A DNA stretch of 40,638 nucleotides from Parcubacteria group bacterium GW2011_GWC2_42_12 (GTDB lineage: Bacteria; Patescibacteriota; Patescibacteriia; Patescibacteriales; GWC2-42-12). Location: assembly GCA_000997945.1 (NCBI GenBank), contig LCCP01000008.1, forward strand, positions 1 through 40,638. Direction: 5' to 3'. Position 1 is the stretch's first letter, and each line of letters begins with the position of its first letter. The position numbers and the translations under genes are program-made. Below, one piece after another: positions 1,854 through 19,227 of the stretch. The notes beneath the pieces are model-generated. The model saw only the letters and a list, made by a program, of their open reading frames with translations, was not told the origin of the DNA and ran no database searches.

Positions 1854-2207
1854 CTATATTCCAAAATGCTTCTTTAAATAATATTTTATTGCGGAAACAG
1901 ATTTAACATTTATTTTCCCGATAATCTTTGAAAAACTGCGGTAATCAAACGAGGTTATGCAATATACTTTTGCCACCGAGTCAATTCTTAATTTATTTTC
2001 TTGATTCGCCGGAATTAAAATATCATCTCCGGCAAGATTGCCGGATTGAGAGGTAAGAGGAATAACCGTGACTAAATTTGATTTGTTTAGCTGCTCGTTT
2101 AATTGTATAACTATCGCCGGCCTTTTATCCTGATATTCGTGACCGACGCTCGGGTCAAACTTAGTCCAAACGATATCGCCAAACCGCAAATCTCCTTTTT
2201 GAATCAT
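1854..2207 (-). CDS. MazF/PemK-family toxin-like protein
   Basis: GDIVWTKFDPSVGHEYQDKRPAIVIQ ... VTVIPLTS pattern of PemK/MazF; 4-nt overlap with upstream repressor. Confidence 0.85.
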   Translation of the reverse strand: MIQKGDLRFGDIVWTKFDPSVGHEYQDKRPAIVIQLNEQLNKSNLVTVIPLTSQSGNLAGDDILIPANQENKLRIDSVAKVYCITSFDYRSFSKIIGKINVKSVSAIKYYLKKHFGI

Positions 2208-2950
2208 AATTTTTCATAATAATCATAATCCACTTTAGAAATAGGACCAATTTCTTTTAAAATATCTTTGCCTGATTCATTTCTCATAAATGGAACCTCG
2301 TCAGGTTTTTTCATAACATCAACTACTTTGCCGCAGACCAGATAATTGGAATAGTCATCAGCATGAATATAGATCGGCGGCAGATCAAGCATAGATTCGG
2401 ACATTAAAATTATTTGCTGGCTTTTTTTGTCAATCATTATTTTTTTTATATTTGCCAAACCGTCAATTATCGAAACCACATATTCTCCGTTTGAAGGGAT
2501 ACCTTCTTCCTTCTCCGCTATCACATAATCTCCTTCCTCAATGGTTTTGCCATTAACATTCGCCCGATTCATTGAATCGCCTACGGCCCTTAAAACAAAT
2601 AAATTATCTAATCTGTTTTTAAATTTATCACCCAAAATTTTTAAAGACACTTTTAAATAGCCTTCAATTTTCTGATCAGCAAAAGTCAAAGCCTCCCCGC
2701 AATTGGCCGAACCGACAATCGGTAGGGAAACAATCTTTGACTTTTTATCAATGCCACCGACAGCGGGCCTCAATATCTTGCCGTCACCGCTTACGAGCAA
2801 AAGCCCTTTTTCCATAAGTTTATCAAGGTGGTGTTTTGTTTTTTGAGGACTGCCCGGCTCATTTATCAACTCCCCGATTTTCCTTAAAGTAAAATCGGCC
2901 AAGTTATGTTCTTTGGCTAAATTTAGCAGTTTTTGTTGGATTATGTGCAT
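2204..2950 (-). CDS. LexA/UmuD-like S24 self-cleaving repressor
   Basis: N-terminal winged-helix-like region; GDSMNRA (Ser) and ANIKKI (Lys) of S24 peptidases; candidate Cys-Gly cleavage site in SANCGE. Confidence 0.85.
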   Translation of the reverse strand: MHIIQQKLLNLAKEHNLADFTLRKIGELINEPGSPQKTKHHLDKLMEKGLLLVSGDGKILRPAVGGIDKKSKIVSLPIVGSANCGEALTFADQKIEGYLKVSLKILGDKFKNRLDNLFVLRAVGDSMNRANVNGKTIEEGDYVIAEKEEGIPSNGEYVVSIIDGLANIKKIMIDKKSQQIILMSESMLDLPPIYIHADDYSNYLVCGKVVDVMKKPDEVPFMRNESGKDILKEIGPISKVDYDYYEKL

Positions 2951-2982
2951 AGCATAGTTTGATAAAGATAGGTTATATAGGA

Positions 2983-3011
2983 ATTATATATCTTTTTACA
3001 CTTCTTGTCAA
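2983..3011 (-). promoter_or_regulatory. Consensus promoter of the repressor-toxin operon
   Basis: Minus strand TTGACA (3011-3006), 17-nt spacer, TATAAT (2988-2983). Confidence 0.75.
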
Positions 3012-3041
3012 CAGTTTTGACACAGCGTAATAGTTGACAAG
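3004..3041. promoter_or_regulatory. Operator-like inverted repeat between divergent promoters
   Basis: CTTGTCAAC (3004-3012) / GTTGACAAG (3033-3041); also TGTCAA-N5-TTGACA at 3006-3022. Confidence 0.6.
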
Positions 3042-3061
3042 ATTTTTACTTTTGTTATATT
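3034..3061 (+). promoter_or_regulatory. Promoter for the divergent 45-aa ORF
   Basis: TTGACA (3034-3039), 16-nt spacer, TATATT (3056-3061). Confidence 0.65.
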
Positions 3062-3148
3062 GATAACAGGGTACTTTTCTCGCTCCTCGGAAGCGAGCTA
3101 ATTAACTAAATCCGAATCCGGGGCGTGGATCATTTAATCTTTGATTTT

Positions 3149-3286
3149 ATGGCAAAATCAAAAACTTTTCTTGTTGGCCGTAAAGCTAATAAAGGAACTT
3201 TGGTCAGCGTTGAATACGCACGAGCTCATAAAAAAAGTTGTATTGTAGAAAGAATGCCGAAAAAGGGATTTGGCGATACAAATTAG
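3149..3286 (+). CDS. Small basic protein, 45 aa
   Basis: MAKSKTFLVGRKANKGTLVSVEYARAHKKSCIVERMPKKGFGDTN*; below the ORF-track cutoff; strong promoter upstream. Confidence 0.55.
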   Translation: MAKSKTFLVGRKANKGTLVSVEYARAHKKSCIVERMPKKGFGDTN

Positions 3287-3427: not shown

Positions 3428-4111
3428 CTAATTACTAGTCTCTTGCTCTGGGACACAGAATGGTTTAAATAATGGCAATTTTGAACTAATGTATTGATTA
3501 CTACATCTCATAAAAATATTTAAATTTAACAAATTTTTCTTTTCTCCTTCTAGATAAAATTCTATTTGTGGCTTAAAAATAAAATAGAATTTATTATCCT
3601 TCTTGAGCCATTTTAATAAATCTGAAATAACCGGTCCGCCCAATGGGATGTTCACTTTTTCTCCCACAGATAAAGGAAAATTATCGCTCGGTATATCAGG
3701 TGTAACATTTAATATAATATGCCCATAAGAAGAATAAACTAATAACCTTTTTAATGAAATTAACAATTTAAAATTACCACAATTTTCAATTTCAGCGATA
3801 GCTCTCATTTTGTCAATCTCTTCTAAATTAACATCGCCGTTATTTTCTAAAGGTTCTATCGCTTTATCCTGAGAATCATAGTATAAAAAACGAACATCAT
3901 TAAAACACAATTTGGGTTCAGTTTTATCAGGAACTAAAATGGAATGATTTTTATTCGACGGCTCAAGTTTAAAATTCATAAAATTAAACTCTGTAAAGCG
4001 CCACCCGAGAAAATACAAATATATTACGATAAACCCTCCAATTAACAATAAACAAAATATAACGATGTGTTTACTGCGAATTTTATTAATAATATTTTTT
4101 ATTTTAATCAT
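3428..4111 (-). CDS. Hypothetical protein with N-terminal TM segment
   Basis: IVIFCLLLIGGFIVIYLYFLGW; 4-nt overlap with the methylase ORF. Confidence 0.65.
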   Translation of the reverse strand: MIKIKNIINKIRSKHIVIFCLLLIGGFIVIYLYFLGWRFTEFNFMNFKLEPSNKNHSILVPDKTEPKLCFNDVRFLYYDSQDKAIEPLENNGDVNLEEIDKMRAIAEIENCGNFKLLISLKRLLVYSSYGHIILNVTPDIPSDNFPLSVGEKVNIPLGGPVISDLLKWLKKDNKFYFIFKPQIEFYLEGEKKNLLNLNIFMRCSNQYISSKLPLFKPFCVPEQETSN

Positions 4112-5790
4112 ACTTTTTCAATAATTGCTATTTCCTCCTCCGTCAATCCATACAGCTCATAAACTTTTTGATCTATTTCTTTATCGGTTTTTTCTATTTC
4201 TTCTTTAACTTCATTATATTCTTTATCGTCCATAATCGGATCTAATTTTTGCAGTTTTTGATTCAAATCTATTACTTCATTAACTTTTTTAACTACCTTC
4301 GCAATTTCATTCTTAGAAGGTACTATTATCGGCAGTTGCTTTAACTGCGGTGATCCGATACGAAGATAACCTCCTGCAAGAGATAACGATTTAAAAATAT
4401 TTTTATAAATAAAAGTTATTAATTTACTATTTAATATCCCTAAAATAAATTTTATATCAACTCTTTCACTCTCAACTATAGTAGTAGATTTCCCGGCCAA
4501 ATAAACTCCTTTTTCGTCTAAATAGCACTCAAATTTTTTAACCATCCCTGCTATTACAATTTTCTGTTTATATGATTCCTTATATCTCCTCGGGAATGTT
4601 TTTTCCAAATCTTTTTTTAGGACGATTGGCTTTAAATAACTTTGTTTTATATATTGAGTTTTTCCTTTATCCCACAAAGAAACATATCTATCAATGGTTC
4701 CTGTATTAATAAATTTAAAATAGTCATCTATTTTATTATCTTTTAAATCAAAGATAATATTTTTTATCTCGTAGGCCTCGCTGACAGTAGCGGCACCATG
4801 GATATTACATAGTTCCTCCAATTTCTTTGAGCTGCTCATTATTCGCTCTATAAAATTAACATTTTCATTATAATTAAATATAGTAGACCAGCTATTTTTA
4901 AAATTATTTAAAAACTCTTGTTTTACAGAACTTTTATTTTCTAAAACTACTTGTCCGTCAACTTCCTTATAAATATTTACACTAAATTGATGTTGATTGT
5001 TCGGTTTGTCTTTTTTTATAATAATTACGATTGGATAAACGCTGGCCCCAAAAACCTTAATATTGGAATAATCGTTAATTGATATTATCGAATATCTTTT
5101 AATAATTTCCCTAATTGATGCTGCATAGTCAGCTGATAAAAGTTTATTTGGCATAATCATGCCAAAATATCCTCCTGATTTAAGTAGGTCCAACCCTCGT
5201 TGAATAAAAACACAAAATATATCCCAATTTCCTTTCGCACTTTCATATTCGTCTGAACAATAAATTCTAAAATTTTTATCAATTTTTACAATTTCCTCTG
5301 AATCAATATATGGCGGATTGCCGATTATTACATCAAACCCGCCCTGCTTAAAAACCGAAGCAAATTTTTCCTGCCAATTAAACGGCTTTTTATCTTTCCA
5401 TTTTTCACCGAAATATTTCTTTAATTCCTCCTCGCTTCCTGAAATTAAGGAATTGCCGCATTCTATATTGTGGCCTAAGTTAGGCAGAAGTTCGCGTTTA
5501 ACCAAAACTTTTAATAATAAATTCAATTGCGCGATTTCCACGGCTTCTTGATCTAAATCCGCGCCGTAAATATTTGAAGTTAAAATGCTTACTTTTCTGG
5601 CATAATTTTTCATATCATCCGCGTCCAACTCATTATTTTCCCGTTTAATATGGTTATCCAAAACTTCAAAGGCCTTGATTAAAAACGAACCTGAACCGCA
5701 AGCCGGATCTAAAATTTTAATTTTTGAGGCTTCAAAACCAGATTTTCCTTTTAATAATTCGCCTAAAGTATTTTTTACGATATAATCCAC
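4108..5790 (-). CDS. Type IIG (Eco57I-like) restriction-modification enzyme, methylase/specificity part
   Basis: DPACGSGSFL and GNPPY motifs; frame stays open upstream to 5985, so the listed GTG start lies inside the conserved YYTPRYIVDYIVKNTLG segment. Confidence 0.85.
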   Translation of the reverse strand: MDYIVKNTLGELLKGKSGFEASKIKILDPACGSGSFLIKAFEVLDNHIKRENNELDADDMKNYARKVSILTSNIYGADLDQEAVEIAQLNLLLKVLVKRELLPNLGHNIECGNSLISGSEEELKKYFGEKWKDKKPFNWQEKFASVFKQGGFDVIIGNPPYIDSEEIVKIDKNFRIYCSDEYESAKGNWDIFCVFIQRGLDLLKSGGYFGMIMPNKLLSADYAASIREIIKRYSIISINDYSNIKVFGASVYPIVIIIKKDKPNNQHQFSVNIYKEVDGQVVLENKSSVKQEFLNNFKNSWSTIFNYNENVNFIERIMSSSKKLEELCNIHGAATVSEAYEIKNIIFDLKDNKIDDYFKFINTGTIDRYVSLWDKGKTQYIKQSYLKPIVLKKDLEKTFPRRYKESYKQKIVIAGMVKKFECYLDEKGVYLAGKSTTIVESERVDIKFILGILNSKLITFIYKNIFKSLSLAGGYLRIGSPQLKQLPIIVPSKNEIAKVVKKVNEVIDLNQKLQKLDPIMDDKEYNEVKEEIEKTDKEIDQKVYELYGLTEEEIAIIEKV

Positions 5791-5985: not shown

Positions 5986-6849
5986 TTAATATACCAGCGC
6001 GTCGCAAATGGCCGGCTCAAATAATTTGCTATTATAGCCAGCGTCATAATCCTTAAACAATTTTTTCATTTCTTCGGCCAAATTTATTTTGCCCTTGCCG
6101 TCTTCCCAATTTCTAACTATTTCTCTTAATTTTTCTCCTTCTATATTTCGGTCTTCGGTCGTCCTAATAAATATCAACCTGTCTAAAAGCCGTTGCACGC
6201 TCTCGGCAGTTTGCTTATCAGTTAAATTTTTATCGCTGTTCCAACCTTTTAAATCATTAAACAAAAATGTCCGCCATTTTACCAAATCATCGGCTAATAA
6301 TTTATCAACCGCCTCTCTTTTTGGTTTTTTAAAATTGGCTTCCGCGTATTTATCCAACTCGCCTTTGGCCATTGATTGCTTGGACAACCACCACAATTTC
6401 TCATCTTCCAAATAATTTTTATAATTTATCTCAAAAATTAAACTCCTCTCCGCGTCCGGCTCGTCCCACTCGGCGCTATATACCTTTATGCCCTCAAAGT
6501 CGGTTAAAACCGCCCAGGGTACGCTTTTGTGCCAAGCATAAGAAATGGCTTGCTCGCCATGCTTAGCTTCTCTTAAATCCACACTTGGCTTCTTAGCCTC
6601 AACAAAAAATTTAATAACATCGTTAACATGAAAAGCATAATCAGCGCGTCCGCCGGAGACCTGCGTTTCCGAAGTAACTTCATTATTGGAATAATTATTA
6701 TAAACATCCCAGCCCAAGGCCTGAAATAAAGGTAAAATAAAATCTTTGCAAGTCATTGACTCATTTTTTTGCCTAAATTCAGCTGCCGTAAGGCCGACGA
6801 ATTTAACTACCAAACGCTCAATTTGTTGTTTACCTTCTTGTTTATTCAT
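5986..6849 (-). CDS. Type IIG restriction-modification enzyme, N-terminal nuclease part (split from downstream ORF by TAA)
   Basis: GRADYAF...KFFVEAKK nuclease motif; same frame as 4108-5985. Confidence 0.8.
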   Translation of the reverse strand: MNKQEGKQQIERLVVKFVGLTAAEFRQKNESMTCKDFILPLFQALGWDVYNNYSNNEVTSETQVSGGRADYAFHVNDVIKFFVEAKKPSVDLREAKHGEQAISYAWHKSVPWAVLTDFEGIKVYSAEWDEPDAERSLIFEINYKNYLEDEKLWWLSKQSMAKGELDKYAEANFKKPKREAVDKLLADDLVKWRTFLFNDLKGWNSDKNLTDKQTAESVQRLLDRLIFIRTTEDRNIEGEKLREIVRNWEDGKGKINLAEEMKKLFKDYDAGYNSKLFEPAICDALVY

Positions 6850-11847: not shown

Positions 11848-12474
11848 ATGAAAATAGCACGAGCGCTCTTGTCAGTATCAGACAAAACCGGTCTAGTTCC
11901 CTTCGCTCAAGTTTTGGCACAAGCCGGCGTGGAGCTTCTTTCTACGGGCGGTACGGCCAAAGCTCTGCGCGATGCCGGCCTAACGGTCAAAGACATCAGT
12001 GAACACACCGGTTTTCCGGAAATACTGGACGGCCGCGTCAAAACTCTGCATCCCAAAGTGCACGGCGGTCTGCTGTACATCCGCGGTAACGCCACGCACG
12101 AAGCCACCGTGGCACAACACGGCATCGCGCCGATTGACCTGGTGGTCGTCAACCTCTACCCGTTTGGGCAAACCGTTGCCAAGCCAGGCGCCACCCTGCA
12201 CGATGCCATCGAGAACATCGACATCGGCGGTCCGAGCATGCTCCGTAGCGCGGCCAAGAACCATGACAGCGTTACGGTTGTGGTGGATCCGGCCGATTAC
12301 GCCAGGGTCGCCGAACAAATTCAAGCGACCGGCGAAACAACCTTGGGCCTGCGTCGCAAACTAGCGGCAAAAGTATTCGCACGCACTGCCGCCTACGACG
12401 CCAAGATCGCCAATTACTGCCGATCTGTATTCGAGTTTGTATTCGAGGCTGAAATTGAGGGGAACAACCAGTAA
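11848..12474 (+). CDS. Stand-alone IMP cyclohydrolase (PurH N-terminal, MGS-like) domain
   Basis: [40 protein letters not shown]...[19 protein letters not shown]...[16 protein letters not shown]; no AICAR transformylase domain follows. Confidence 0.92.
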
Positions 12475-14931: not shown

Positions 14932-15423
14932 TCAATACAAATTTAGCTTTTGCCCAGGCTTTGCCTCCTCTATTTTCTCCCCCACCCTTTTTAACACTAA
15001 CTCAACATTATCCATCATAGTTTTTATTTCTGGCGGTGAAATATAAAATATGCCTCCGTATTCCATGCCGGTTCTCTTTTTACCAATCTTTTTTAAACTA
15101 GTATAGACTTTAAACATGCTTTCATCATCTAAAGTCAACCAAATGGTGTTTATCGCAGCCTCATGATGACCTTTCGTAGTTCCGCTTGTTCTATAACCGC
15201 ATAAGACTAACATCACCTCGCATAAAATTCTGAATGAGTTATACAGTTCGGCATAGGCGGATATATAAACGCTTTCATCGCCGTCATTGTTCATTAAAAA
15301 TCTTTTCGCATTCTTAAAGCGGGATGAAGCTATATTGTATCTTTTGGTAATTTCTTCAAAAGTAAATTCGATCTTTTCAATTTTTCCAGTTTTTTCAAAC
15401 TGGGTTAAATTTTCTAAATTCAT
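14932..15423 (-). CDS. HEPN-like protein
   Basis: Helical protein with SAYAELYNSFRILCEVMLVLCGYRTSGTTKGHHEAA, immediately downstream of and overlapping a nucleotidyltransferase. Confidence 0.6.
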   Translation of the reverse strand: MNLENLTQFEKTGKIEKIEFTFEEITKRYNIASSRFKNAKRFLMNNDGDESVYISAYAELYNSFRILCEVMLVLCGYRTSGTTKGHHEAAINTIWLTLDDESMFKVYTSLKKIGKKRTGMEYGGIFYISPPEIKTMMDNVELVLKRVGEKIEEAKPGQKLNLY

Positions 15424-15973
15424 CTAAGTTGCCTTTTAGCAATATCATTTTATTGCTAAAAATGTTATTTATAAAACTATTATTCGCAAATTTTTCAACT
15501 AATTCCTGTTTTTTATAAATATGATAATTAATATCTCGGCTGATTTTTGTCTCCAGCTTGGTTATTTCCTCAATAAAATTATCTTCGTTGACCTCCCCGA
15601 TAATAAATAAATCTATGTCGCTACCGCTATTGAATTTATCCGTTGCGAAAGAGCCGAAAATGAACGCCGTTTCAATGGTATCAATTTTTTCTATTATCTC
15701 TCTTAACTGCGCTTCAATCCCGATTGTTTTCGAGATCATCGCTTTAATCTCATTATATAGCTGATAATCTTTGTTTAACCAAAAAAACCGCATATTGCCA
15801 ATGCGCTCCTCGCATAAAATTCCATCACTAATCATTTTTTCAATATATCTTTGATAGTTGGCCGACTCTTTGCCTAAAATTTTTGCCGCCTCCGCCAGAT
15901 AGTATCTTTTATCGGGGTTGGAAAACATTAAATTTAAAATTTCGCCTTGCCCATTTTTTAAAAAATCCAGCAT
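15395..15973 (-). CDS. wHTH-nucleotidyltransferase (MNT-like)
   Basis: N-terminal winged helix; AFIFGSFATDKFNSGSDIDLFIIG matches GSFA..SDIDL. Confidence 0.85.
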   Translation of the reverse strand: MLDFLKNGQGEILNLMFSNPDKRYYLAEAAKILGKESANYQRYIEKMISDGILCEERIGNMRFFWLNKDYQLYNEIKAMISKTIGIEAQLREIIEKIDTIETAFIFGSFATDKFNSGSDIDLFIIGEVNEDNFIEEITKLETKISRDINYHIYKKQELVEKFANNSFINNIFSNKMILLKGNLDEFRKFNPV

Positions 15974-17226: not shown

Positions 17227-18321
17227 ATGGCTAAAAACACTAATAAAAAAACCGAAAAACACATCGCCTCGGACAATTTTTCCAAACGGATTGAAAATAT
17301 TCCGGCCGGTATTGTTTCTAAAATCGCCAAAATTGATGAACTAAAAGGACGATGGATCTCGGGCGCCCGCCTTAGCCCGCAAGTCCTGGGAAGATTAAAG
17401 CGGTCGGTTTTAATTACTTCAACCGGCGCCTCTACTCGTATTGAGGGCGCGCGCATGTCTGACGCTGATATTAAAAAATTGATGCGCGGTATTAGCATCC
17501 AAAAATTCACCAACCGCGACAAGCAGGAAGTCCGGGGCTATTATGAACTATTAGAAAATGTTTTTAATTCATGGAAAAATTTAAAATTTAACGAAAGCCT
17601 GGTTAAGCATTTTCACCAACAGCTCTTGCAATACGCCGACAAGGATCAAGGTCATCGGGGTCAATACAAAAAGGGCGAAAATAAAGTTCACATGATAGAC
17701 GAAGCCGGCCAGTCAATCGGCATTCTTTTTGACACCTCGCCCGCCTATCTCACCCCGGGTCAAATGTGCGATCTGACTGAATGGACGCAAAAAGCGCTAA
17801 GAGAAAACGAATATCATCCGCTATTGGTAATTGGAAATTTTTTGGTTGAGTTCCTGAAAATTCACCCCTTTACCGACGGCAACGGCAGATTGTCTCGCGT
17901 GCTGACAAATTTACTCTTACTGCAGGCCGGCTATTTATATATGCCGTATGTTTCGCATGAAAAATTAGTGGAAGATAATAAACCGGATTATTATATCGCC
18001 CTAAGAAGAAGCCAAAAAACTATCGGCTCAAAAGAAGAAAGCATCGCCGCTTGGCTGGATTTCTTTCTGGACATTTTTTTAAAGCAATCGCAAATGGCGG
18101 TAGAACTTTTGTCCAAAGAGAATATAGAAAAAATTCTGTCGGAAAAACAGCTTATCGTCTGGCAATACATTGAAAAGACAAAAGAAACCAGCACCGGCGA
18201 TATTATTGATAATACCAAGATAGCCAGGCCGACCGTTAAGCAGGCGCTGGAGGTTTTGCTTAAACTCAAAAGAATTGAAAGAATCGGACTGGGCAGAAGC
18301 TCAAGGTATAGAAAAATTTAA
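17227..18321 (+). CDS. Fic-family protein with N-terminal inhibitory motif and C-terminal HTH
   Basis: HPFTDGNGRLSR; TGASTRIEGARMSD; C-terminal winged helix. Confidence 0.93.
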   Translation: MAKNTNKKTEKHIASDNFSKRIENIPAGIVSKIAKIDELKGRWISGARLSPQVLGRLKRSVLITSTGASTRIEGARMSDADIKKLMRGISIQKFTNRDKQEVRGYYELLENVFNSWKNLKFNESLVKHFHQQLLQYADKDQGHRGQYKKGENKVHMIDEAGQSIGILFDTSPAYLTPGQMCDLTEWTQKALRENEYHPLLVIGNFLVEFLKIHPFTDGNGRLSRVLTNLLLLQAGYLYMPYVSHEKLVEDNKPDYYIALRRSQKTIGSKEESIAAWLDFFLDIFLKQSQMAVELLSKENIEKILSEKQLIVWQYIEKTKETSTGDIIDNTKIARPTVKQALEVLLKLKRIERIGLGRSSRYRKI

Positions 18322-18333
18322 AACATCAAACAT

Positions 18334-19227
18334 ATGAAGGAGGCAATTATTTACGTCCGCGTCTCATCCAAAGAGCAAAAACAGGAGGGATACTCTATCC
18401 CCGCTCAGAAAAAACTGCTGGCCGATTTCGCCAAGGCGAATGATTTTAAAATAGTAAAAGAATTTGAGGACGACGAAACCGCTAAAAGCGCCGGCCGGAC
18501 CGGCTTCGGCCAGATGATTGAATATGTAAAAGCCAATAAAGATGTTAAAAATATCCTCGTGGAAAAAACCGATCGGCTTTACCGTAATTTCAAAGACTAT
18601 GTCATTATAGACGAGCTTGATGTTACGGTTTTTTTAGTTAAAGAAAACGAGCAGATTGGCAAAGCGGCCAGCTCGCACCAAAAATTCATGCACGGCATAA
18701 AAGTTTTAATGGCCAAAAATTATGTTGACAACCTAAGCGAGGAAGTAAAAAAAGGGCAACGGCAGAAAGCGGATGATGGATTTTTTCCCGGCACGCCGCC
18801 GGTTGGCTACAAGCTGGAAAAAACCGAGGGCAAGAACGCGGCGGTCATTGATGAAATAAACAAGCAATTGCCGATCAAAATGTTTGAATATTACGCTACT
18901 GGCCTATATTCGCTTTTAGCCCTGGTCGCCAAAGTCAAAGCCGAGGGGCTAATGTCCGGCATTTATCCACACCATTCTAAGATGAAAATCTTAACCAAGG
19001 CCTCGGCCCATAGAATTCTGCGCAACCCTTTCTATTACGGCGATTTTATGTGGAACAAAAAAATCTACAAAGGCAAACATCAGCCGCTTATAGCCAAAGA
19101 GCTATGGAATAAAGTCCAAACTATGCTTAGCCGGTATGAAAACAAGAGCGGAGCCTATAAATTCCGCGATAATATCGCCTTATTTCCCTTTAAACGGCTA
19201 TTAAAGTGCGGCGGAATGCGGCCGTAG
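18334..19227 (+). pseudogene. Large serine recombinase, 5' part (frameshifted)
   Basis: AIIYVRVSSKEQKQEGYSIPAQKKLL; recombinase domain; ends at LLKCGGMRP* inside the zinc ribbon. Confidence 0.9.

What the first reader, a model, noticed from the sequence alone, without database searches (positions are those of the whole stretch)
1854..3286. LexA/UmuD-type repressor in operon with a MazF/PemK toxin, divergent from an unlisted 45-aa protein: candidate damage-responsive toxin module
Seen: the S24 repressor (2204-2950) and MazF/PemK ORF (1854-2207) overlap by 4 nt, and no ordinary antitoxin gene is present. An unlisted ORF (3149-3286) is transcribed away from the same control region. recA is 0.3 kb upstream of this cluster. 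Known: S24 repressors self-cleave when stimulated by RecA-ssDNA, and MazF/PemK toxins are usually paired with a DNA-binding antitoxin. Inference: the self-cleaving repressor may take the antitoxin/autoregulator role, or the 45-aa protein may be the antitoxin, linking toxin activation to DNA damage.
Basis: partly seen in the sequence, partly recalled or inferred. Interest (0 to 1): 0.72.

Follow-up and report, generated by a model that had tools for sequence, protein, structure and literature searches.

The report
LexA-like repressor doubles as MazF antitoxin
In a tiny-genome bacterium, a DNA-damage-type (LexA-like) self-cutting repressor carries a short swappable tail that sits right before an RNA-cutting toxin gene in many relatives, so the repressor most likely is the toxin's antidote and could tie the toxin to DNA damage; binding and triggering are not yet shown.

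Summary
In detail: a LexA/UmuD-like S24 repressor gene (2204-2950, -) overlaps a MazF/PemK toxin gene (1854-2207, -) by 4 nt, with no ordinary MazE. The key feature is at the repressor's C-terminus: residues 215-248 are a 34-residue add-on ('...DILKELGPISKEEYDYYENL') absent from close S24 relatives. Tail-bearing S24 genes are followed directly by MazF in 15 of 16 cases, tail-less ones in 0 of 15 (p=6e-8). The same tail ends an unrelated antitoxin type, XRE-HTH+Panacea, always before MazF (12 of 12), whereas 35 tail-less Panacea proteins have no MazF and mostly precede RelE-like ORFs. On the MazF tree the two partners are shuffled at random. So the tail is best read as a portable MazF-neutralising segment, and S24 and Panacea as interchangeable regulator/sensor modules. 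The S24 cleavage site (Cys84-Gly85) and Ser126/Lys169 dyad are invariant, and an inverted repeat covers the divergent promoters. DNA-damage triggering is plausible but untested. The 45-aa ORF is not the antitoxin; recA is merely the neighbour at a recA/efp insertion site. New variant of type II toxin-antitoxin; neutralisation and RecA response need the bench.

The parts
1854..2207 (-). MazF/PemK-type endoribonuclease toxin, 117 aa
   Evidence: PF02452 E=3.4e-20; AF2 pLDDT 88, Foldseek to MazF structures E~1e-9; R29 and T52 align with E. coli MazF R29/T52, R29 invariant in 9 homologues, T52 T or S
2204..2950 (-). LexA/UmuD-like S24 repressor with C-terminal antitoxin tail, 248 aa (proposed antitoxin/autoregulator)
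   Evidence: PF00717 and TIGR00498 matches; AF2 model matches LexA, including LexA bound to a RecA filament
2753..2950 (-). N-terminal winged-helix DNA-binding domain of the S24 protein (residues 1-66)
   Evidence: AF2 helices 3-14, 22-28, 35-47, pLDDT 76-88; full-length Foldseek matches to LexA
2309..2722 (-). S24 autoproteolytic domain (residues 77-214)
   Evidence: Pfam 77-210; tail-less homologues end here
2696..2701 (-). Predicted self-cleavage site Cys84-Gly85
   Evidence: Cys-Gly invariant in all 24 S24 proteins aligned; type as in UmuD (own knowledge)
2573..2575 (-). Catalytic Ser126
   Evidence: invariant
2444..2446 (-). Catalytic Lys169
   Evidence: invariant
2207..2308 (-). C-terminal tail (residues 215-248): proposed MazF-neutralising segment, predicted helix pair 221-234/239-247 at low confidence
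   Evidence: shared with XRE-Panacea and 93-aa proteins before MazF; protein-level conservation; AF2
2204..2207 (-). ATGA stop/start overlap (translational coupling)
   Evidence: same overlap in most homologous loci
3005..3040 (.). Inverted repeat TTGTCAA-n22-TTGACAA, putative operator between the divergent promoters
   Evidence: only 3 such sites in the whole genome, control 0; TGTCAA upstream of 12/15 tail-S24 genes versus ~1 in shuffles
2983..3011 (-). Sigma-70-like promoter of the S24-mazF operon (TTGACA-17-TATAAT)
   Evidence: 12/12 match

Best explanation
This is a two-gene type II toxin-antitoxin module. The toxin is a MazF-type RNase. The antitoxin is a LexA/UmuD-like repressor whose N-terminal winged helix binds the operon's own operator and whose last ~34 residues bind and block MazF, as the C-terminal tail of MazE does. 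The tail is a portable neutralising element: the same tail-MazF cassette is also carried by XRE-HTH+Panacea proteins, so S24 and Panacea are interchangeable regulator/sensor modules. Shown here: domain make-up, coupling, tail-MazF linkage, partner swapping, intact self-cleavage site, inverted-repeat operator candidate. Inferred: that the tail binds MazF, that the repeat is the operator, and (least certain, about 0.45) that RecA-stimulated cleavage at Cys84-Gly85 after DNA damage removes repression and, once the tail fragment is degraded, frees MazF.
For: Tail-less S24 relatives end at residue ~214; tail-bearing ones have MazF directly downstream in 15/16 versus 0/15 (Fisher p=6e-8). The same tail on XRE-Panacea proteins: MazF follows in 12/12, while 35 tail-less Panacea proteins in the order have none and mostly precede RelE/ParE-like ORFs (4/4 versus 0/35, p=1e-5). 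A third, unrelated 93-aa tail protein also precedes MazF (L132). All 10 tail-class MazF genes in the order have the tail upstream; the other MazF-family genes seen either have an RHH-type MazE or are longer solo genes. On the MazF tree, partner type changes 8 times versus 8.9 in shuffled labels. The S24 body tree needs only 2 tail changes versus 10.6. Tail codons vary as freely as expected, so the protein is what is conserved. Cross-type tail and MazF distances correlate, r=0.23, p=0.006. Cleavage site and Ser/Lys dyad are invariant. The MazF model's best match is a MazF bound to a fragment of its antitoxin. Kurata et al. 2023 showed such linear, terminally appended neutralising elements in Panacea antitoxins and proposed Panacea as a sensor (PMC10440598).
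Against: No binding or toxicity data. The tail has no significant match to any Pfam family or PDB chain, so its likeness to the MazE tail is functional inference. G050 has S24-tail followed by RhuM-Fic instead of MazF, although G135 has S24-tail, MazF, then RhuM-Fic, suggesting loss of MazF. Several short tail-only ORFs have no MazF (G003, G037, G082, G324, G383). Tail and MazF distances do not correlate within the Panacea group. Cleavage would leave the tail on the C-terminal fragment, so cutting alone need not free the toxin.
Confidence: 0.75

Rival explanations
1. The tail is not a toxin-binding element but a shared degradation tag or other regulatory tag on antitoxins; the S24 body or another protein neutralises MazF.
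For: Tail-only ORFs without MazF exist; one tail-S24 is followed by RhuM-Fic, not MazF; antitoxins are commonly protease targets (own knowledge).
Against: A general antitoxin tag should also occur on antitoxins of other toxins, but 35 tail-less Panacea proteins, many with RelE-like partners, lack it and all tail-bearing Panacea proteins have MazF. RHH-MazE antitoxins lack it.
Confidence: 0.12
2. A toxin-antitoxin module as described, but its S24 domain is not a DNA-damage switch: autocleavage is vestigial, RecA-independent, or answers another cue.
For: The putative operator occurs at only three places in the genome, so this is a local autoregulator, not the SOS repressor. The genome has other LexA-like proteins. 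Panacea replaces S24 freely without any known link to DNA damage. Cleavage would not separate tail and toxin.
Against: Cys-Gly, Ser and Lys are invariant in all tail-bearing proteins. The tail-less sister group G051/G047/G029 is divergent from a Y-family polymerase, like umuDC. Foldseek matches include RecA-bound LexA.
Confidence: 0.35
3. The 45-aa divergent protein is the antitoxin and the S24 protein only regulates transcription.
For: It shares the control region and has a strong promoter-like site.
Against: Homologues in only 5 of 98 genomes, none beside a tail-MazF pair except in the window; other tail-S24-MazF loci, such as G007 with a GIY-YIG gene in that position, lack it.
Confidence: 0.03
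4. The tail is conserved at the nucleotide level as a translation-coupling or ribosome-binding element for mazF.
For: The ATGA overlap lies at its end in most loci.
Against: Synonymous codons differ at 50% of shared residues versus 52% expected by chance; tail-only ORFs keep the protein sequence without mazF.
Confidence: 0.03

Closest known systems
MazEF / PemIK type II toxin-antitoxin systems
   Same: MazF-fold toxin with the key Arg/Thr positions, upstream overlapping antitoxin gene, DNA-binding domain plus C-terminal segment.
   Different: Antitoxin DNA-binding part is a LexA-like winged helix plus S24 autoproteolytic domain, not AbrB/MazE, Phd or RHH; the tail is unrelated in sequence to known families.
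Panacea (PanAT) toxin-antitoxin systems with linear neutralising elements (Kurata et al. 2022, 2023; PMC8832971, PMC10440598)
   Same: Regulator/sensor domain plus exchangeable neutralising element; the very same tail-MazF cassette is carried by XRE-Panacea proteins in related genomes.
   Different: S24/LexA domain replaces XRE-Panacea; neither paper mentions LexA or S24; the MazF tail is not one of the elements named in the passages read (Phd-C, PAD1, ZBD).
LexA / UmuD S24 autoproteolytic regulators
   Same: Winged helix, Cys-Gly cleavage site, Ser-Lys dyad, inverted repeat over its own promoter; tail-less relatives beside a Y-family polymerase.
   Different: Extra C-terminal tail and MazF partner; below the NCBIfam LexA cut-off; no sign of a genome-wide regulon.
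SOS-induced toxin-antitoxin loci such as yafNO, tisB/istR, symE (own knowledge)
   Same: Possible coupling of a toxin to DNA damage.
   Different: There an external LexA controls transcription; here the LexA-like protein would itself be the antitoxin.
Xre/HipA-annotated S24-LexA-like proteins in Campylobacter (PMC7826846)
   Same: An S24-LexA-like protein listed as a possible antitoxin.
   Different: A database label that the authors themselves treat as doubtful; other toxin; no tail described.

Membership tests
MazEF/PemIK type II toxin-antitoxin | MazF/PemK-fold toxin | tested here: met
   PF02452 above cut-off; AF2/Foldseek MazF
MazEF/PemIK type II toxin-antitoxin | Catalytic Arg and Thr of MazF kept | tested here: met
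   R29 and T52 align with E. coli MazF; R29 invariant, T52 T/S in relatives
MazEF/PemIK type II toxin-antitoxin | Adjacent, overlapping antitoxin gene conserved with the toxin | tested here: met
   4-nt overlap; 15/16 tail-S24 genes with MazF
MazEF/PemIK type II toxin-antitoxin | Antitoxin of the MazE/AbrB, Phd or RHH kind | tested here: not met
   Only Peptidase_S24 in Pfam; relatives with RHH-MazE have a different MazF class
MazEF/PemIK type II toxin-antitoxin | Antitoxin binds and neutralises the toxin | not testable with these tools
   No complex prediction possible; only linkage evidence
LexA/UmuD S24 autoproteolytic repressors | N-terminal winged helix plus S24 domain | tested here: met
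   PF00717; Foldseek LexA full length
LexA/UmuD S24 autoproteolytic repressors | Ala/Cys-Gly scissile bond and Ser/Lys dyad | tested here: met
   C84-G85, S126, K169 invariant
LexA/UmuD S24 autoproteolytic repressors | NCBIfam LexA equivalog score | tested here: not met
   60.3 bits versus cut-off 110.95
LexA/UmuD S24 autoproteolytic repressors | RecA-stimulated self-cleavage | not testable with these tools
   needs in vitro assay
LexA/UmuD S24 autoproteolytic repressors | Control of an SOS regulon through dispersed operators | tested here: inconclusive
   TTGTCAA-n-TTGACAA found 3 times in the genome, none at a recognised repair gene
Panacea (PanAT) systems | Panacea domain PF13274 in the antitoxin | tested here: not met
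   no match in the window protein; present in tail-bearing relatives
Panacea (PanAT) systems | Separate neutralising element appended to the sensor domain | tested here: inconclusive
   tail-MazF linkage fits; neutralisation not shown

The most novel reading that the evidence does not exclude
A LexA-family autoproteolytic protein is itself the antitoxin of a MazF RNase through a transplantable C-terminal neutralising tail, and RecA-driven cleavage after DNA damage activates the toxin; the same cassette is swapped between S24 and Panacea sensor modules, which implies that Panacea, too, is a cue-sensing switch.
Probability: 0.4. Interest if true: 0.8.

Novelty: new variant of a known kind. Interest (0 to 1): 0.62.

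Why it matters
It would be a toxin-antitoxin system whose antitoxin carries a built-in DNA-damage sensor, in tiny-genome bacteria whose stress physiology is hardly known. Because the same tail-MazF cassette is joined in nature to either an S24 or a Panacea module, it gives a direct test of an open proposal, that Panacea is a sensor of an unknown toxin-activating cue: swap the modules and compare the triggers. The short tail is also a candidate modular inhibitor of MazF.

Tried and rejected
45-aa ORF as antitoxin: rejected on neighbourhood. recA linkage: rejected as an insertion-site effect. Tail as nucleotide-level coupling signal: rejected by codon comparison. Tail homology to known families: no significant Pfam or PDB match. 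Tail in viral contigs: none found. Tail-MazF cassette exchanged as one block between G000 and G007: only partly; nucleotide identity drops within the tail's last 8 codons (S24 body 82%, tail 77%, mazF 59%). Two early tail extractions were mis-anchored and were corrected; the correlation result held. First try at the named-genome scan failed for lack of conserved columns and was repeated with closer sequences.

Full report
What is there. On the minus strand of the window, an S24 repressor gene (2204-2950) runs into a MazF/PemK gene (1854-2207) with a 4-nt ATGA overlap; both family assignments are solid. No MazE-type gene is present. A 45-aa ORF (3149-3286, +) is divergent. recA (516-1556, +) is convergent with the toxin gene, 297 nt past its end. 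Records of relatives name Falkowbacteria, Magasanikbacteria, Portnoybacteria, Gribaldobacteria, Giovannonibacteria and other Patescibacteria, so the host is taken to be a Patescibacterium.

The repressor has an extra tail. In 98 related genomes the S24 homologues come in two lengths: about 215 residues, ending with the S24 domain, and about 248 residues with a C-terminal extension. Searches with the extension showed it at the end of quite different proteins. The consensus is xxDxLxxxxxASAxDxLKxLGPISKEExDYYxNL. It was found in 14 of 111 genomes of the order, 23 of 381 sampled from the class (weakest hits doubtful) and 7 of 380 sampled from the phylum, four of those seven being the window genome or genomes already in the class set. 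No viral contig carried it, and no Pfam family or PDB chain matches it significantly.

The tail goes with MazF. Three architectures carry it directly before a MazF gene, usually with the same overlap: S24 repressors (16 loci, 15 with MazF; the MazF is frameshifted or interrupted in G202, G792 and G044), XRE-HTH+Panacea proteins (12 of 12, the tail itself being cut short in G094), and a 93-aa protein without known domains in a Giovannonibacteria genome. Two controls support specificity. Tail-less S24 homologues have no MazF downstream (0/15 versus 15/16, p=6e-8). Tail-less Panacea proteins of the same order have none either (0/35 versus 4/4, p=1e-5); most precede RelE/ParE-like ORFs, including one in the window's own genome. 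The single short MazF match beside a tail-less Panacea gene (L170, 21 residues, E=8e-4) lies in a RelE-like ORF and was counted as chance. Conversely, the MazF-family genes of the order that were read fall into three classes: those with an RHH-type MazE, longer solo genes, and the tail class, where all 10 have the tail upstream. The p-values treat related loci as independent, so they overstate the certainty.

Partner swapping. On the MazF tree, S24, Panacea and other partners are mixed as if at random (8 changes, shuffled 8.9), and MazF identity within and between partner types is equal (0.48, 0.46, 0.47). The S24 bodies cluster by tail, with two changes versus 10.6 in shuffles, consistent with about two acquisitions. 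Between the window and G007 the S24 body is 82% identical in nucleotides and mazF only 59%. Tail and MazF distances correlate across partner types (r=0.23, p=0.006) but not within the Panacea group, so co-evolution evidence is weak. Codon comparison shows that the tail is conserved as protein.

The switch. In 24 aligned proteins the Cys-Gly site, the serine and the lysine of S24 autoproteolysis are invariant (window C84-G85, S126, K169). The AF2 model is of moderate quality (pLDDT 65), with a confident winged helix and a tail of two predicted helices; its best structural matches are LexA proteins, including RecA-bound LexA. A tail-less sister group (G051, G047, G029) lies divergent from a Y-family polymerase, like umuDC. 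Upstream of S24 genes, TGTCAA in inverted orientation to the -35 box is found in 21 of 25 against 1.4 in shuffles; in RHH-MazE genes, 1 of 10. The full inverted repeat occurs at three places in the genome: this operon, the tail-less XRE-Panacea/RelE-like operon, and near an FTR1-like permease gene. This fits local autoregulation rather than a global SOS regulon. Some Panacea promoters carry the repeat half too (5 of 12), so it may partly reflect palindromes built around a -35 box.

How it most likely works. Full-length S24-tail protein represses the operon and holds MazF through its tail. Kurata et al. (2023, PMC10440598) showed for Panacea antitoxins that neutralisation can lie in an appended element and proposed that Panacea senses a cue. 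Here the same slot is filled by S24, whose known cue in other proteins is the RecA filament. After DNA damage, cleavage would lift repression and, if the tail-bearing fragment is then degraded, free MazF. The last two steps are inference; the tail stays on the C-terminal fragment, so fragment stability decides the outcome.

The 45-aa ORF is a small gene with homologues in 5 of 98 genomes, but never beside another tail-MazF pair. recA and efp are convergent neighbours with under 400 bp between them in 17 of 21 genomes where both lie on one contig; the window has 5.4 kb inserted there, and G005, G017 and G027 have smaller inserts. G037 also has tail genes beside recA and efp. recA proximity is therefore no evidence for function.

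Novelty. Searches of the paper library found no report of an S24/LexA-like antitoxin with a MazF tail. The two Panacea papers mention PemK/MazF partners but not LexA or S24; the 2009 survey of type II systems has no 'S24' in its text; a Campylobacter survey lists an S24-LexA-like protein under Xre/HipA but doubts it. Most subscription papers and preprints were not searchable. I rate it a new variant of a known kind.

Noticed in passing
window 4108-5790 and 5986-6849 (-): A type IIG restriction-methyltransferase gene split in two ORFs; the intact 904-aa version lies next to the S24-MazF pair in G007 (L034:1611-4325), so the two systems may travel together.
   Followed up: partly
L147:1056-2507 (own genome C5): A LexA-like protein fused to a DNA methyltransferase (483 aa). 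S24 hits in open frames of 488-520 aa in G002, G006, G011, G017, G033, G075 and G076 suggest that such fusions are common in this order.
   Followed up: no
L147:9540-10328 and downstream: Own-genome XRE-Panacea protein without the tail, followed by a RelE-like ORF, with the same TTGTCAA-n-TTGACAA repeat at its promoter.
   Followed up: partly
L031:2940-3086, L062:1495-1653, L065:44-259, L070:1426-1599, L075:1498-1668: Short ORFs consisting mostly of the tail with no MazF beside them; possible orphan antitoxins (anti-addiction) or remnants. The one in L065 sits behind a RelBE-like pair next to recA.
   Followed up: partly
L035:4727-5713: RhuM-Fic protein directly overlapping an S24-tail gene in G050; in G135 (L067) it follows MazF. 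Possible toxin replacement or MazF loss.
   Followed up: partly
window 14932-15973 (-): Gene pair (nucleotidyltransferase-like plus small partner) matching PADLOC candidate system PDC-M05 A/B.
   Followed up: no
window 17227-19227 (+): Fic protein (SoFic-like) followed by a serine-recombinase-like ORF, a likely mobile segment.
   Followed up: no
window 11848-12474 (+): ORF that reads like a PurH N-terminal fragment and looks G+C-richer than its surroundings; possible recent transfer or assembly chimera (by eye only).
   Followed up: no
L081:1498-1749: 83-aa protein with a DUF7695 start and a weak version of the tail at its end; no MazF seen.
   Followed up: no
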